This document shows positions 6,331 through 61,513 of a stretch of 64,000 bases of DNA, in pieces (the first letter of the stretch is position 1; every line of letters begins with the position of its first letter). The notes under the pieces were generated by a model. That model was not told where the DNA came from. It saw only the letters and a program-made list of their open reading frames with translations, and did no database searches. This stretch comes from Coniochaeta sp. PMI_546. Its lineage: Eukaryota > Ascomycota > Sordariomycetes > Coniochaetales > Coniochaetaceae. A program made the translations under genes and the position numbers. The DNA is taken from assembly GCA_021432605.1 (NCBI GenBank), contig MU271154.1:1-64000 (forward strand), read 5' to 3'.

Positions 6331-8019
6331 ATGGACAGACAGCGCATGGTCCCCCGACTGGACAAATACGATGCTCTTCTTCGCAGGCTATTCGAAATAT
6401 TGATCCTCTCTGACATCGTGAAGAAAGTCCACGAGTCGCACTCTATCGCGAGCCATGATTACTCCTCGATCACAGGTGTACGACGGAGGTTTCTCAAGAA
6501 CCTAGCCTTCATTTGCGATTACGACAAAGGAGGGCCAAGTACTTCGACTGTGGCAGTTGAGGAACGCGTAGATTGCTGCGTCATTTGGGTATCCTCCAAC
6601 GAAGGTGCTGGTCCCTCAGTCGTTAGCTTTCTCGAGTCTGTTTTGTCTCATCTTCGGAATATTTCCAGCTCCTCGGGAGAGACGAAGCTTGAGCAGGAAG
6701 CAGCCCTGGCGAAGAAATGTTCCTCCTTTGCTTCAAAACGTATCTGGAAGGAATGGAAATTTCTCACAAGATCAGCCAAGAAGTGCTTGGGGTTTCTCGA
6801 TGGTAACAGTGACACAGGTACGTCCCTCAATATAATAGCTGTTCTAAGACATGCGAGTGAATCATTTGAGCACAAGGCTACGAGAATGGGAGCTAACATA
6901 ACCGTGATCTAGACGCGAGCCTTCGTGCCTGGTTGGGCGGCTTTACAGTTCGGTCTTGGCAACAACCATTGGCAGTGTGCCAGAAGGCCTATGAGGCTCG
7001 TGACCCGGTCTCTATGCAAAGAGTAGAGGAATATTGCCGGGAGTCTGATGACGGCGATGTAAACAATGAGATAGCCCAGTCTTTCCGAATGGTCCGCCAC
7101 TTTGTTGGGCGCCTGGCCTCTCGCATCCGGGCAGTCACGCAGCTCATTGACGACGCATATCGGCTGCGGACATTCTTGACTGACAACAACCTCCGTGTGG
7201 AGTCGGTACCGTTACCGCGAGGCGTTGAGGTGCCCTCGGCGGACGCGCACACAAATATAAGAAGTATTCTCCGGCGGCTTATGCCCGCAGATGCTTCTGA
7301 CTACGAGGCACTATGCGACTGTCTGAATACTTTGGACATATCGTGTGGTCTCAGCGCCGGGATCTTATCTAGACACGCTGGCGGTAACAGAGCCCTCAAG
7401 CCCCGTGTGCACAGCGAAGTGCAGATGGCGGATCATTTCCACGCTGGAGGTCTACGATTTTGGAACGACGACCCTTTCATTGGCAGTAGCAAGCCCGCCT
7501 GTCTCTGTTGCAAACTATACATGAGGTATCACCCGATCGATTTCATCCCCCCTGATTCTCACAATAAAGTTCATCCCAACTGGTGCCCTGCTCTCCTTCC
7601 TGACGGCCGGAAAGACGCTCGATGGGTCGAGCATCGAAATAATCTTATATCAATGATTCACGACATTTCCCACCCTGTCTTGCAACAGATTCGTACTTTG
7701 AGCACGTCTGGAACTTATCAAGCGGATTCGTTAACCCAGATCACACAATTCGAGGACGACAGCTTGGCTCAGCATGGCTCTGATGAGAGTGAATTTTCCG
7801 AAGGAGGCCATGGGAATGTGAATGACTGTAAGGTTCCCATACTCATACCGCCAGTTAAATTCTTGACTGACTGCGTCAACAGCTGGGCTCTCGGATTTTG
7901 ACTTTGAAGTCACGGCAGATGACCAAGCACAGGAAGCATCTTGCATGGAATCGCAGTTAGAGAAGTGTGACTCTGAGACGGACACGGAAGCAGACGGGGG
8001 TGCGAGTTTGGAGGATTGA
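6331..8019 (+). CDS. OTT_1508-like nucleic-acid deaminase family protein
   Basis: Model of three exons, 6331-6817, 6913-7827 and 7883-8019, giving 512 residues. Donors GTACGT and GTAAGG, acceptors TCTAG and AACAG and the frames on both sides agree. The C-terminal half carries the zinc-binding deaminase signature: HSE at about residues 329-331 and PACLCC with cysteines at about 359 and 362, followed by HNKVHPNWCP. This layout is that of the OTT_1508-like deaminases (PF14441), which are common and lineage-expanded in fungi; their substrate is unknown and proposed to be nucleic acid. The N-terminal half (about 1-250) is alpha-helical and unrecognised. The tail after the last intron is acidic. 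No signal peptide, so probably nucleo-cytoplasmic. The first ATG is at 6331. It sits beside the RIP-like block and looks intact. The family call is firm on motifs; function is inferred. Confidence 0.8.
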
Positions 8020-56818: not shown

Positions 56819-59800
56819 TCACTCCTCCAGATGGATCCCAAGTCCCAGCAAATCACTCTGTCTCGACTCTTCGCTCCTCGAGCGCTGCATCGCCGTGCTT
56901 CCTCTCCGCTCACCAAACTCCACCACCCGTCCATCGGCAAGCATGAACCCACCACTCCCACTCCCAGATCCCGATCCGGATGCGTTCCGCGCCATGGCTT
57001 CCCCACCTACCCCAACACCAGGACTCCCTTTGCCCTTGCCCGGTCCCGGCCGTCCACCCCTCGTCACACCCTGGCCGCGTCGCCCCCTCGGCGCAGGACT
57101 CTGACTCTGCGATCTCCCGCTCTTCGTTCCAGAAGGCGTGGTCCACTGAGCAGCGGCCATCGGACTCTCCCGCTCATCTTGGATGGCGTGAGAATGTCGA
57201 TCCTCCCACCGTGAATAGCTCGTTTCCACCTCGCCGAACGCGTCGCCTAGCCTTGGACTCGGTTCCGTCTCCGTGTGCGAGGGCCGGCGCTGTCGAAGAC
57301 CTGGGATATTGAATGGCAGGAGGCGGTTGATTATCCCGCTTCCACTTCCGCTTCTTGCCCGGCCCGACGGTGGGGAAGAAGATTGCGGCTGTGCGGTTTC
57401 TGGTGCCGAGCGGTGGGACTGGTTGCTACCCCCGCCGGTAGATGGATTTCGGGACATGGGCTCCGACGTGTAGCCTCCTGGACCGCTAAGCTGGAGCTGT
57501 GCGGTGCGGGTCATGGGTTGCACGTTGGTGTTTGGTGGGGAGGGGCGCTGGATGGAGGGATAGGAGAAGGAGAGCGGACCGGCGTCCTGGTAGGCTAGGG
57601 ACGAGGAATCGAGACGGCTGAGGGTGGGATGATAGGCGTGCGTCTCCCACTGCCGTATGGTGGGTGGCAAGCCGCGGCGGAGCGAGGCAGCAGTGTTGAT
57701 CTCGATTTCGATTGGTGGTGGAGGGAAAGGTGACGAGCGGTTGGCGGGACTTGAGCCGGCGCTGCGTGTACCGGCAAACAATGGAGCGGGAGAGGCGGGC
57801 AGATTCGCATCCTTGGGGTTGTCGGTCTGCTCCGGGTCGCAGTCGGCTGGCTTCAGATTCTCTTTGAGCTTCTTGAGAGTGGCTGCCGTCCAGCTCGATG
57901 GCGTGGCAGCTATTTTCGCCAGGCTATTTGAGAACTCAACTGGTGACATGGAGTACTCGTCTTCCGGTATCTTCGTCGCCAGCGGGTCAGCGTGGCTGTT
58001 GCTTCCCATGAGGAATCGTGGCCGGGGTAGGCTTCCTTGGCTAAAGCTTCTCTCGTGGAGCATGTGCTTGTCATCCGACGACGGAATCGACTTCCTGATC
58101 TTGTGTAGCTGCAGCTCAGCCTCGCTTTCCGCGCTTAGTCGATTCTGACTCTGGCTTCTAGGCGGCTGGGAGACATTTGTGATGGAGCCCTTGGCGATTT
58201 CACGGCTAATACTAACCCGAGGATCGCTGATGCTTGTGTCCCTCCATGCACCCGCACGATCGTGGTAGCGACGATGCTCGACCTTCCTGACAGATCTATG
58301 GTTCAGATTTGGGATAATGAAGTCCCATTCAGAGCCCTGCCGGTCGTTCCTGACATTGCCATTTTCCGCTCTCGACGAACCATCGACTCCAGTAGCATTA
58401 CCACGGTTCGGGGAGGCAGTGACAGTCCTGGCGTCATCGTGGAGATCAGAAGGGTCTCGAGGCACTGGTATAGTCTGTTGTTGAGGATATGGAACATGGA
58501 AGTGGTAAGGATTATGCGCAAAGTCCGGCCCTGGCGTCGTCGGCGATTGAAACATTTGAGATCTTTCGTCATCGTCATGAAGGACAGACGTGATGCCGCT
58601 CGTGCTTGTGCTGCTGTGGCTTGGCGGAGTCATTGAATCCGTCTCAGACGAGCTCCCCGTTCGCTCAAAGACAGAAATCGGCGGCATCTCCTGAGACCCT
58701 TCGACAATATGCGTTTGCAGGGTGTACGATAGGCGATCGATTTCGCCCTGTGTCTTGTAAAGTCGTTGCTCGATGTTGTCCTTTACCAGACCTAACAATT
58801 CTGGCGACCTCTTCTCGAATTTCTTGACGTGCTCCAGCAGCCTCCTTCCATGGATGGCAAACCGTCGGTAATCGTCAGGTAACCCGACACCGGTGTGTTC
58901 CTTGATCTTCCTATCGGCCTCATCGAACGACCGACACCACACAGCGGCTGCCCTTTCGAGCCAGAAAGGGGTCTGCTTCTCGTCGCTGAGAGTATCAATG
59001 AAGAAAGCCTGTACTACGCTGTGGACCCTGAGAATATCCAGTGACTCCACGGTTCTTTCAGCGCCTTGCTTAGAGCTCCGAGAACTGGTCGGCGAGATGT
59101 CCTGGATTTCCGTCCGCTCGAGCAGGGCGAAGGCGATCAGCACTTTGAGAGTGTTGGTGAGGTTAGCCTTGCGTCGAGAAGCATCTGGCGTCTTGAGTGG
59201 CGTCCGATTGTCTAATGCAGACATGCCTAGGACTCTGGTCAGCAAACAGTTCTCAGCAGTATCCTCGCGACCTGAGCCTTGCTAGCAGGAGTGGCCAAAG
59301 AGACGTACCTAGAGTGAGCATCTCCACGGGTACGTGCTGGTCAAAGAAGACAACGATTGATATGAGGTTGAGTGCCGCAGTAGCTCCTCTGTGTTGCAGC
59401 TGATCGCGAACGGACTTATAAGCTGGCAGCGCACCAGCCTGCGCTCGGTTCTTGTACGACCTCAGATACTTCGAAAGCGGCTCTCTGGTCGCTTTGAGCT
59501 GTTGGGCGGCCACATGTATCATTAGAGGCAGACGTCCCATCAGCTCCACCAGCTCAAGGGCTCTGCTCCGGTCATCTTGAGTCCATGGCTTCTTCTTGTC
59601 CATCTCGAGCAGCAGGAGGTCTGTAGCCTCCCGTGGTGCAAGCAAGGGCAGCTCCATCACCTGAGGGCTATCGAAGCGATAGTCTTCTACAACGGCGCGC
59701 TCCGTTGACGTGAATATCAAGCTTGTGTTTTTTGCATCCGGGATGAACTCTTGCAGTCCTGGGGCATCGAAATGAACACCGTCAAGCACTAAAAGCCAGT

Positions 59801-61513
59801 CGTCGAGGCTGTTGAGCCATTTTCGGACGATGGCCACAATCTTCCTCGGGTCTCGCAGTTCTTGAACATCCTCGTGAGAAACTAGTCCTCTGAGTGCCTC
59901 ATTCTTGGCGATTCGCCAGTACCAATACTCCATTTCCTGCTGGGACTTGGCACGGACCCAGTAGACGCCTCCAGGATAATCCTCCTTGTGCTCGAAAACA
60001 TACTGCCGTGCCAGATGTGTCTTGCCACCACCCGGAAGTGATTGGATCAGAACAGCGGAGGTGCCTTGTGATCGCTTGCCTCGGTCCATAAGCATCTTAT
60101 GCAAAAGTTTCATCTCATCGTCCCTTCCCACAAAGTAGGAGTTTGGTCGAAATGGTTCGGGGTGGATGAACAGGGGCGAATCCTTCGTTTGTGGCACCGT
60201 CACGTCGATTATTTCCGATTGAGTCGAGTCGTGCGTAAGAGCCAGCGGTGGCACTTCCGGTCCTTGTGGAGTTGCCGGGCTCTCGACTTCGTGAACTATC
60301 ATCTGCGTTTCCGTGTTGGGAGGCTGGTTGCCCAGCTGCCGAAGTCGTCGCTCATGAATATCAAGCTGTTGGCGTACTTGTCGATCGTCGAGTTCAACCA
60401 ACCACCGTACTTGAATGACGCTTGGTGCCTCCTTTACCCACTCGCCGATAGCCGTCGATACTGTCCGGAAGCCAGGGGCAGTATTACTCTCAAACTTGCA
60501 CATGCCGGAGTGTGTGGCTTCTATGCCGTAGTACGTAACACCCGGCAGCTGAGGACTGGCGGAGCTCGGGTCGACGACCATAACTCTAGATATACATCAG
60601 CATGCATCCTGACGGATTTGATAGGCAGGATGCATTGGCAGGAGCAGTGCGCCCGACTTACTTTGATCCCTTGATGTCAGTCTTATGATTCTCGTGAGCC
60701 ATATGTATCTGAAAGCGCTGGTAGATATCCAGAAAGTGGTTGTTGATATTCTGCAACGTCTCATTGTCCTTCTTGAGCGTCTTGATCAGCACAGGCTCCG
60801 TCTCGAATATCTTCCTCGGTATCACAGCCTCAGACATGGACTGCAGCATGTGGCCCCAAGTTGCAAGACCAGATCCTAAGTGTGGCGTGCCGAGGAAAAT
60901 GATGCCGTACGTCGACACATAGACCGACCTGAGGTCATCGTGATTCTCCGTCCGCACATCGTTCGAGTACAGGAGTGCACGTTTGGTGAGGATACCGCCC
61001 AGACTATGGACGACCCAGATGATGGGGTTCTTCAGGGTGCCTTCACTCTTGCGGTAGTGTGTGAGAGTTGCGACCAGAGTCTGGGCATGGTGGTGGATGA
61101 AATTATTGCTTGCGCTCCGGTCATTGCGGCTGGAGTAGACGTCGGCATTGTAGCCGTACACCAACACGTTGGCGTGCTCTGCCTTTAAGCTGTCCGGCAG
61201 CAGATCGGTGGGCCAGAAGACGCCGTTCTGTGCCGTCCATGTTCTCTGCGGATCACCATTCAGACCGTGGACGAGGATAATGTCCACTTTAGCTTCTGGG
61301 TGGGTGTAGACGGCTGTGAACTCATAGCGTTGGATTTGCTTGTTGATGGATCCCTGTATCTTTGTTAGCTGGATGGAATGATGCTGCGGCCCGATCCGCG
61401 CCCAACGAAAGACACAAACAGCACGGCACCGCAGAATAACAGCTGTTTGGTCGTGCAAATGCACAGAAGAATAGATTAAAATGGTCAAGGGCGCAGGAAA
61501 GCGCACATACCAT
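56819..61513 (-). CDS. NLR-like STAND protein: alpha/beta hydrolase (SesB-like) + NB-ARC + long disordered tail
   Basis: Model of four exons, 61513-61511, 61353-60662, 60585-59309 and 59226-56819, 1459 residues. Exon 1 is only the ATG; its donor GTATGT and the GCTAACAAAGATACAG acceptor fit, but the start is the weakest part. Hydrolase domain, about 22-265: DIILVHGLNGDPQRTW, VHSLGG with Ser at about 118, IIFLGTPHLGS, and EATHSGMCKF with His at about 257. NB-ARC: PGGGKTHLAR (about 416-425), LLVLDG (496-500), GRLPLM (582-587), and an MHD-like VHSVVQAF at about 725. A winged-helix region follows; then from about 840 to 1459 a Ser/Pro/Gly-rich disordered tail replaces the usual TPR, ankyrin or WD repeats. 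SesB-type NLRs are fungal STAND proteins linked to heterokaryon incompatibility and self/non-self response. Confidence 0.8.

What the first reader, a model, noticed from the sequence alone, without database searches (positions are those of the whole stretch)
56819..61513. Hydrolase/NB-ARC NLR-like protein with a ~620-residue disordered tail in place of repeats
The sequence shows an intact Ser/His hydrolase pair joined to an NB-ARC ATPase with P-loop, Walker B, GLPL-like and MHD-like motifs. Established: SesB-like hydrolase/NB-ARC fusions occur among fungal STAND proteins and normally end in TPR, ankyrin or WD repeats that act as the sensor. Here, after the winged-helix region, a Ser/Pro/Gly-rich tail of about 620 residues with no visible repeats fills that place. 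Either the sensor is another kind of region, or the C-terminal domain was lost or replaced.
Basis: partly seen in the sequence, partly recalled or inferred. Interest (0 to 1): 0.7.

Follow-up and report, generated by a model that had tools for sequence, protein, structure and literature searches.

The report
Fungal lipase-NLR with disordered, repeat-free tail
This is an intact fungal immune-receptor-type gene that joins a lipase-like enzyme to an ATP-driven switch and ends in a long, probably floppy tail instead of the usual sensor repeats; the enzyme-switch fusion is already known, and whether the tail acts as the sensor is untested.

Summary
On the minus strand, 56819-61513 encodes a predicted four-exon gene of 1459 aa: a sesB/LipA-type serine hydrolase (DUF676; S118, H257, tentative D237), an NB-ARC ATPase (391-610), a winged-helix region with VHS in the MHD place, a helical segment (about 743-835) and a 624-residue Ser/Pro/Gly/Arg-rich tail. 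Pfam finds no TPR, ankyrin, WD or other family in the tail, and the genome shows no second copy of it. Canonical relatives are present: 8 of 10 other NB-ARC loci scanned carry TPR matches, 6 above Pfam's cut-off, one of them a hydrolase-NB-ARC-TPR protein (L029). The kind is not new: LipA/NB-ARC fusions were reported in 2005, and 48% of fungal NLRs in one survey had no C-terminal Pfam annotation. No orthologue could be reached, so conservation, loss or replacement stays open. Best reading: an NB-ARC-gated hydrolase of the sesB-like NLR class in which the tail, perhaps with the helical segment, takes the regulatory place of the repeats. New member of a known kind; sensing through a disordered tail is possible but unproven.

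The parts
56819..61513 (-). whole gene, 4 exons, 1459 aa
   Evidence: splice model with GT..AG introns and a single terminal stop; no RNA evidence
61511..61513 (-). exon 1: the ATG alone
   Evidence: ATG followed by GTATGT; intron 1 (61354-61510, 157 nt) ends CTAAC...ATACAG
60662..61353 (-). exon 2: most of the sesB/LipA-type (DUF676) serine hydrolase, nucleophile S118
   Evidence: Pfam DUF676 E 1.7e-5 over 26-168, 1.8e-6 for the domain alone; serine motif shared with own-genome relatives
59309..60585 (-). exon 3: end of hydrolase (D237, H257), linker, NB-ARC, start of winged helix
59451..60110 (-). NB-ARC domain, residues 391-610 (motifs at 416, 496, 582)
   Evidence: Pfam NB-ARC E 8.3e-6; phmmer to plant NRC4 chain E 4.6e-7
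60018..60035 (-). P-loop PGGGKT, residues 416-421
   Evidence: aligned with paralogues
59009..59026 (-). MHD-like motif VHSVVQ, residues 725-730
   Evidence: aligned with MHSLAH/VHRLVH of paralogues
59227..59308 (-). intron 3 (82 nt), must be spliced to read into the tail
   Evidence: GTACGT...CTGAC...CCTAG, in frame; a 37-nt alternative also keeps the frame
58694..58972 (-). helical segment, residues about 743-835
   Evidence: AlphaFold2 of the exon frame, single sequence, block pLDDT up to 69; only a sub-threshold Pfam match, INTS1_R4 E 0.055
56819..58693 (-). Ser/Pro/Gly/Arg-rich tail, residues 836-1459, predicted disordered, and the stop codon
   Evidence: composition and open frame, no Pfam match, no other copy in own genome

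Best explanation
An intact fungal STAND/NLR-type protein of the sesB-like hydrolase / NB-ARC class. Inferred working: in the ADP state the NB-ARC and winged helix hold the hydrolase idle; a cue received through the C-terminal part (helical segment plus disordered tail, by binding a partner or by phosphorylation) allows ADP/ATP exchange and assembly of an NB-ARC ring; the clustered serine hydrolases then cleave a lipid or ester and cause a stress or cell-death response. Shown here: the domains and their order, the nucleophile serine and the histidine, the P-loop, and the absence of detectable repeats. Inferred: enzymatic activity, oligomerisation, the role of the tail, and the outcome.
For: DUF676 and NB-ARC above their Pfam cut-offs. 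The serine is kept in 13 of 14 other hydrolase-like rows of the same genome and the histidine in 11 of 11 rows that reach it; the window gene has both. The NB-ARC frame matches plant NRC4 (E 4.6e-7). The NB-ARC plus winged-helix part matches the bacterial NB-ARC/TPR family NF040586 (E 1.1e-27, 96.9 bits against a family cut-off of 300, profile 5-336 of 830). The order of parts equals that of the hydrolase-NB-ARC-TPR paralogue L029, to which residues 24-607 align (27% identity, E 2.7e-46). The literature assigns sesB-like domains to lipases/esterases and the C-terminus to sensing, and reports cell death dependent on the patatin domain and the ATP-binding motif for PLP-1, an NB-ARC/TPR NLR with another lipase.
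Against: No activity, expression or orthologue data. The Arg of the sensor-1 TTR motif (name recalled) is replaced (TST), and Walker B is LDG where all five aligned paralogues have DN, so ATP turnover may be weak or altered. The acid D237 is tentative: D or E in 7 of 12 other rows. The whole-genome NB-ARC family search did not list this gene, so it is divergent. The gene sits among core genes, where a housekeeping role is as plausible as immunity. Nothing shows that the tail senses anything; its short-motif counts do not clearly exceed shuffles.
Confidence: 0.6

Rival explanations
1. A former sesB/NB-ARC/TPR NLR that lost its repeats; the tail is a weakly constrained low-complexity extension and the protein keeps only a constitutive or partner-dependent role.
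For: Most relatives scanned in the genome carry TPR; codon preference falls to chance in the last quarter of the tail (z 0.4); no tail homologue in the genome.
Against: The frame stays open over 612 codons, longer than the longest open run in 2000 shuffles; hydrolase serine and histidine and the P-loop are in place; a decaying gene would be expected to gather stops.
Confidence: 0.2
2. A conserved, single-copy hydrolase/ATPase of core physiology (lipid or stress signalling), not a variable immune receptor; the tail is a normal, old part of its family.
For: Neighbouring frames are core genes by Pfam: Ribo_biogen_C/Fer4_RLI, IF-2, VHS/GAT, Ariadne, FHA. A transcript named 'LipA and NB-ARC domain-containing protein' is listed in a Colletotrichum conidial-fusion study, there as a secretory effector uniquely expressed in fusion, with a possible function of integrating stress and nutrient signals (passages only). 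I recall, untested, long proteins under this name in many ascomycetes.
Against: No orthologue could be examined. Core neighbours do not prove core function.
Confidence: 0.3
3. Gene-model artefact: two genes, or a protein that ends near intron 3, so that the tail is not joined to the NB-ARC.
For: Translation of the tail depends on a third intron with two in-frame acceptors.
Against: The winged-helix/VHS region, which belongs to the NB-ARC module, lies in exon 4, in the same open frame as the tail.
Confidence: 0.07

Closest known systems
LipA (SesB) / NB-ARC fusion proteins (Fedorova et al. 2005, PMC1325252; passages and the STAND section seen)
   Different: The text seen does not describe the C-terminal region, and its figure is not held, so the tail cannot be compared.
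sesB-like / NB-ARC / TPR NLRs (e.g. Podospora Pa_2_10340, PMC4986451, passages; own-genome L029)
   Same: Same order of hydrolase and NB-ARC; 27% identity over residues 24-607 to L029.
   Different: They end in TPR repeats (L029: TPR_12 E 3.1e-38); none is detected here.
sesB-like NLR with no repeat detected (Podospora Pa_5_11700, sesB-like/NACHT, 1041 aa, PMC3689799 Table 3, passages)
   Same: sesB-like effector with no C-terminal repeat found; 4 of 17 proteins in that table have 'None detected'.
   Different: NACHT instead of NB-ARC; nature of its C-terminus not given.
PLP-1 (Neurospora), patatin/NB-ARC/TPR (PMC12881547, passages)
   Same: Lipase-type effector under NB-ARC control.
   Different: Patatin instead of sesB-like domain; TPR repeats.

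Membership tests
STAND / NB-ARC NTPases | NB-ARC match with P-loop | tested here: met
   Pfam E 8.3e-6, above cut-off; PGGGKT at 416. The six-frame genome search with the same family did not list it
STAND / NB-ARC NTPases | Walker B, sensor-1 TTR, GLPL and MHD-type motifs (names recalled) | tested here: inconclusive
   LLVLDG, GRLPLM and VHSVVQ present; TTR is TST, and the second His of the paralogues' H..H pattern is Gln
sesB/LipA-like serine hydrolases | DUF676-type domain with serine, acid and histidine | tested here: met
   DUF676 E 1.8e-6, above cut-off; S118 and H257 shared with relatives, acid D237 only tentative
sesB/LipA-like serine hydrolases | lipase or esterase activity | not testable with these tools
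   needs purified protein
Canonical tripartite fungal NLR | C-terminal TPR, ankyrin, WD40 or HEAT repeats | tested here: not met
   no Pfam match in the tail (HMMER's filters drop most matches above E 0.1), and only a sub-threshold INTS1_R4 match (E 0.055) in the helical segment
Canonical tripartite fungal NLR | ligand-induced oligomerisation and cell death | not testable with these tools
   needs experiments
LipA/NB-ARC fusion proteins | LipA/SesB domain fused to NB-ARC in one chain | tested here: met
   spliced model with both Pfam matches; splicing not tested by RNA

The most novel reading that the evidence does not exclude
An NLR-type receptor in which a conserved, intrinsically disordered tail of about 620 residues is the sensor or regulatory input of an NB-ARC-gated lipase, in place of a repeat scaffold, for example as a multi-site phosphorylation or partner-binding switch.
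Probability: 0.2. Interest if true: 0.65.

Novelty: new member of a known kind. Interest (0 to 1): 0.33.

Why it matters
NLR sensing is generally explained by repeat scaffolds. A large share of fungal NLR C-termini carry no annotation (48% without a Pfam match in one survey), and this gene gives a concrete case in which the unannotated part looks disordered rather than like an undetected repeat. If orthologues keep the tail, it would make a testable case for sensing or regulation through disorder; if not, it is an ordinary degenerate C-terminus.

Tried and rejected
Hidden repeats: Pfam scans of the tail, asked up to E 1 and E 10, listed nothing (HMMER's filters drop most matches above about 0.1). 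The NCBIfam NB-ARC/TPR model matches only at its positions 5-336 of 830, ending at protein residue about 742; where its TPR part begins was not looked at.

Homology of the helical segment to the pre-TPR arm: a 5-sequence profile scored the window below the best of 2000 shuffles. In a multiple alignment an R...H...L pattern lines up, which I do not count.

Orthologue searches in bacterial/archaeal genome contigs and viral contigs found none; these collections are not meant to hold fungi, so this says nothing about distribution.

Structure prediction: the exon-4 model has mean pLDDT 37.6 and the NB-ARC exon 34.1, both from single sequences. As the NB-ARC part should be folded, low pLDDT is no proof of disorder. 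No fold search was run.

Short motifs in the tail: SP/TP, PxxP and R[SRFYW]x[ST]xP do not exceed shuffles; RxxS/T is 17 against a mean of 11.5, with 57 of 1000 shuffles as high.

PADLOC: the hydrolase exon matches a model named DUF626_VIII (E 5.4e-9), not followed.

Literature: one paper holds the phrase 'LipA and NB-ARC'. Searches for NB-ARC + intrinsically disordered + fungal NLR (1 paper), DUF676 + NB-ARC (2 papers) and NLR + disordered + fungi + SesB (6 papers) showed no title or abstract start that describes a disordered NLR tail; of these I opened only PMC9815663 and PMC3689799, in passages. The words 'disorder' or 'disordered' do not occur in PMC4986451, PMC12258605, PMC9815663 and PMC12881547. 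Supplementary files and figures were not seen.

Full report
What is there. The window lies at the start of contig C12 of a 33.5-Mb, 24-contig genome that has no relatives in the prokaryote collection. From its gene content and the introns of this gene I infer a filamentous ascomycete; the species was not identified. Exons: 61513-61511 (the ATG alone), 61353-60662, 60585-59309 and 59226-56819; introns of 157, 76 and 82 nt; 1459 aa. The third intron has two in-frame acceptors, giving 1459 or 1474 aa; I use the longer intron because of its branch-like CTGAC and TAG end. This is a prediction without RNA support.

Hydrolase. Residues 26-168 match DUF676, a putative serine esterase family, above its cut-off (E 1.7e-5; 1.8e-6 for the domain alone). 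The serine of HSLGG (S118) and the histidine of ATHSGM (H257) line up with other sesB-like loci of the same genome: serine in 13 of 14 rows, histidine in 11 of 11 rows that reach it. The tentative acid D237 aligns with D or E in only 7 of 12 rows that reach it (two of the 14 rows, L021 and L022, hold the same gene; the window's own three rows are not counted).

ATPase. NB-ARC matches at 391-610 (E 8.3e-6). The six-frame genome search with the same family listed 11 matches elsewhere and not this one, so it is a divergent member. PGGGKT, LLVLDG, GRLPLM and VHSVVQ are at 416, 496, 582 and 725. Against five paralogues, the arginine of TTR is absent (kept in 4 of 5 paralogues) and Walker B is LDG where all five have DN. 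By sequence the best solved relative is the plant NLR NRC4 (E 4.6e-7). The best NCBIfam model is a bacterial NB-ARC/TPR protein, NF040586, E 1.1e-27 over profile positions 5-336 of 830, 96.9 bits against a cut-off of 300. That match ends near residue 742, soon after the VHS motif.

C-terminus. AlphaFold2 on the exon-4 frame gives helices up to frame residue 196 (protein about 835), then almost none: two short helices near residues 1087-1096 and 1106-1112 (converted to the 1459-aa model). Confidence is low throughout and equally low for the NB-ARC exon, so the model is weak evidence. Composition is better evidence: S, P and G make up 216 of 627 residues from 833 on; order-promoting residues (W F Y I L V M C) are 24-43% of body windows and 6-27% of tail windows; FoldIndex is negative in 17 of 23 tail windows against 14 of 34 body windows. 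The first of these measures separates tail from body well, FoldIndex only in part. No Pfam family was listed for the tail, and the genome search found no second copy.

Is the tail translated? The frame is open for 612 codons, above the longest run (451) in 2000 base shuffles. Codon preference, scored against nine neighbouring gene frames, gives z 2.8 for the tail and 7.6 for the body; by quarters of the tail 0.7, 3.5, 1.5 and 0.4. So translation is likely but rests mostly on the open frame.

Comparison within the genome. I looked at 11 other NB-ARC loci: the ten (one of them with two matches) and L029. Of these, 10 were scanned with one frame each: 8 carry TPR matches at E up to 0.01 (L029, L030, L031, L032, L037, L038, L039, L041), 6 of them above a Pfam cut-off, while L039 and L041 stay below. 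Two show none: L040, whose frame ends about 80 residues after the NB-ARC, and L042. For L037, L038, L039, L041 and L042 the frame scanned is a downstream exon frame taken by position, without a gene model. One locus was left out because it holds masked letters. L029 is a hydrolase-NB-ARC-TPR protein and aligns with the window protein over residues 24-607, although its nucleophile position reads CHGMGG, without serine. The window protein is thus unusual among the relatives examined here.

Neighbourhood. Nearby frames match FHA, translation initiation factor 2, Ribo_biogen_C/Fer4_RLI, GMC oxidoreductase, VHS/GAT, DUF3405, CoA transferase, Ariadne-type E3, mitochondrial carrier, RINT1/TIP1 and Drc1-Sld2; 7 of the 20 frames scanned gave no match. 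This is largely a core-gene setting. On the other side, the longest frame in L034 is a lysine-rich protein.

Literature. Fedorova et al. 2005 (abstract, passages and STAND section) report NB-ARC fused to LipA/SesB. Dyrka et al. 2014 (passages and one section) found sesB-like among the commonest annotated fungal NLR effectors and only 52% of C-terminal regions with a Pfam annotation. A 2025 Sordariales survey (passages) assigned canonical repeats to 67% of NLRs and counts 287 sesB-like NB-ARC proteins; its first candidate set required a canonical C-terminal domain, so repeat-less proteins may be undercounted. A Podospora study (passages) lists a sesB-like NLR with no repeat detected, and 4 of 17 proteins in its table lack one. 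So repeat-less sesB-like NLRs have precedent; a disordered tail in one was not described in the passages I saw.

Reading. The most likely working is that of an NB-ARC-gated sesB-like hydrolase: anatomy shown, activity and gating inferred. The tail is most simply its regulatory region. Whether it is conserved and whether it senses is open, and this decides the interest. As no fungal comparison outside this genome could be made, I keep the score modest.

Noticed in passing
L029:5244-8777 (+): A hydrolase-NB-ARC-TPR paralogue whose nucleophile motif reads CHGMGG, without the serine, which suggests a dead hydrolase in an otherwise NLR-type frame.
   Followed up: partly
window 6897-7898 (+): Frame with an OTT_1508-like deaminase domain (Pfam E 8.7e-16).
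   Followed up: no
window 60658-61353 (-): The hydrolase exon matches a PADLOC defence-library model named DUF626_VIII at E 5.4e-9, a possible link to bacterial defence hydrolases.
   Followed up: no
L040:1307-2395 (+): NB-ARC frame near a contig start that ends about 80 residues after the NB-ARC match, with no TPR in that frame; a truncated NLR or one that continues in another exon.
   Followed up: no
window 61511-61513 (-): The first coding exon is predicted to hold only the ATG, easily missed by gene finders.
   Followed up: partly
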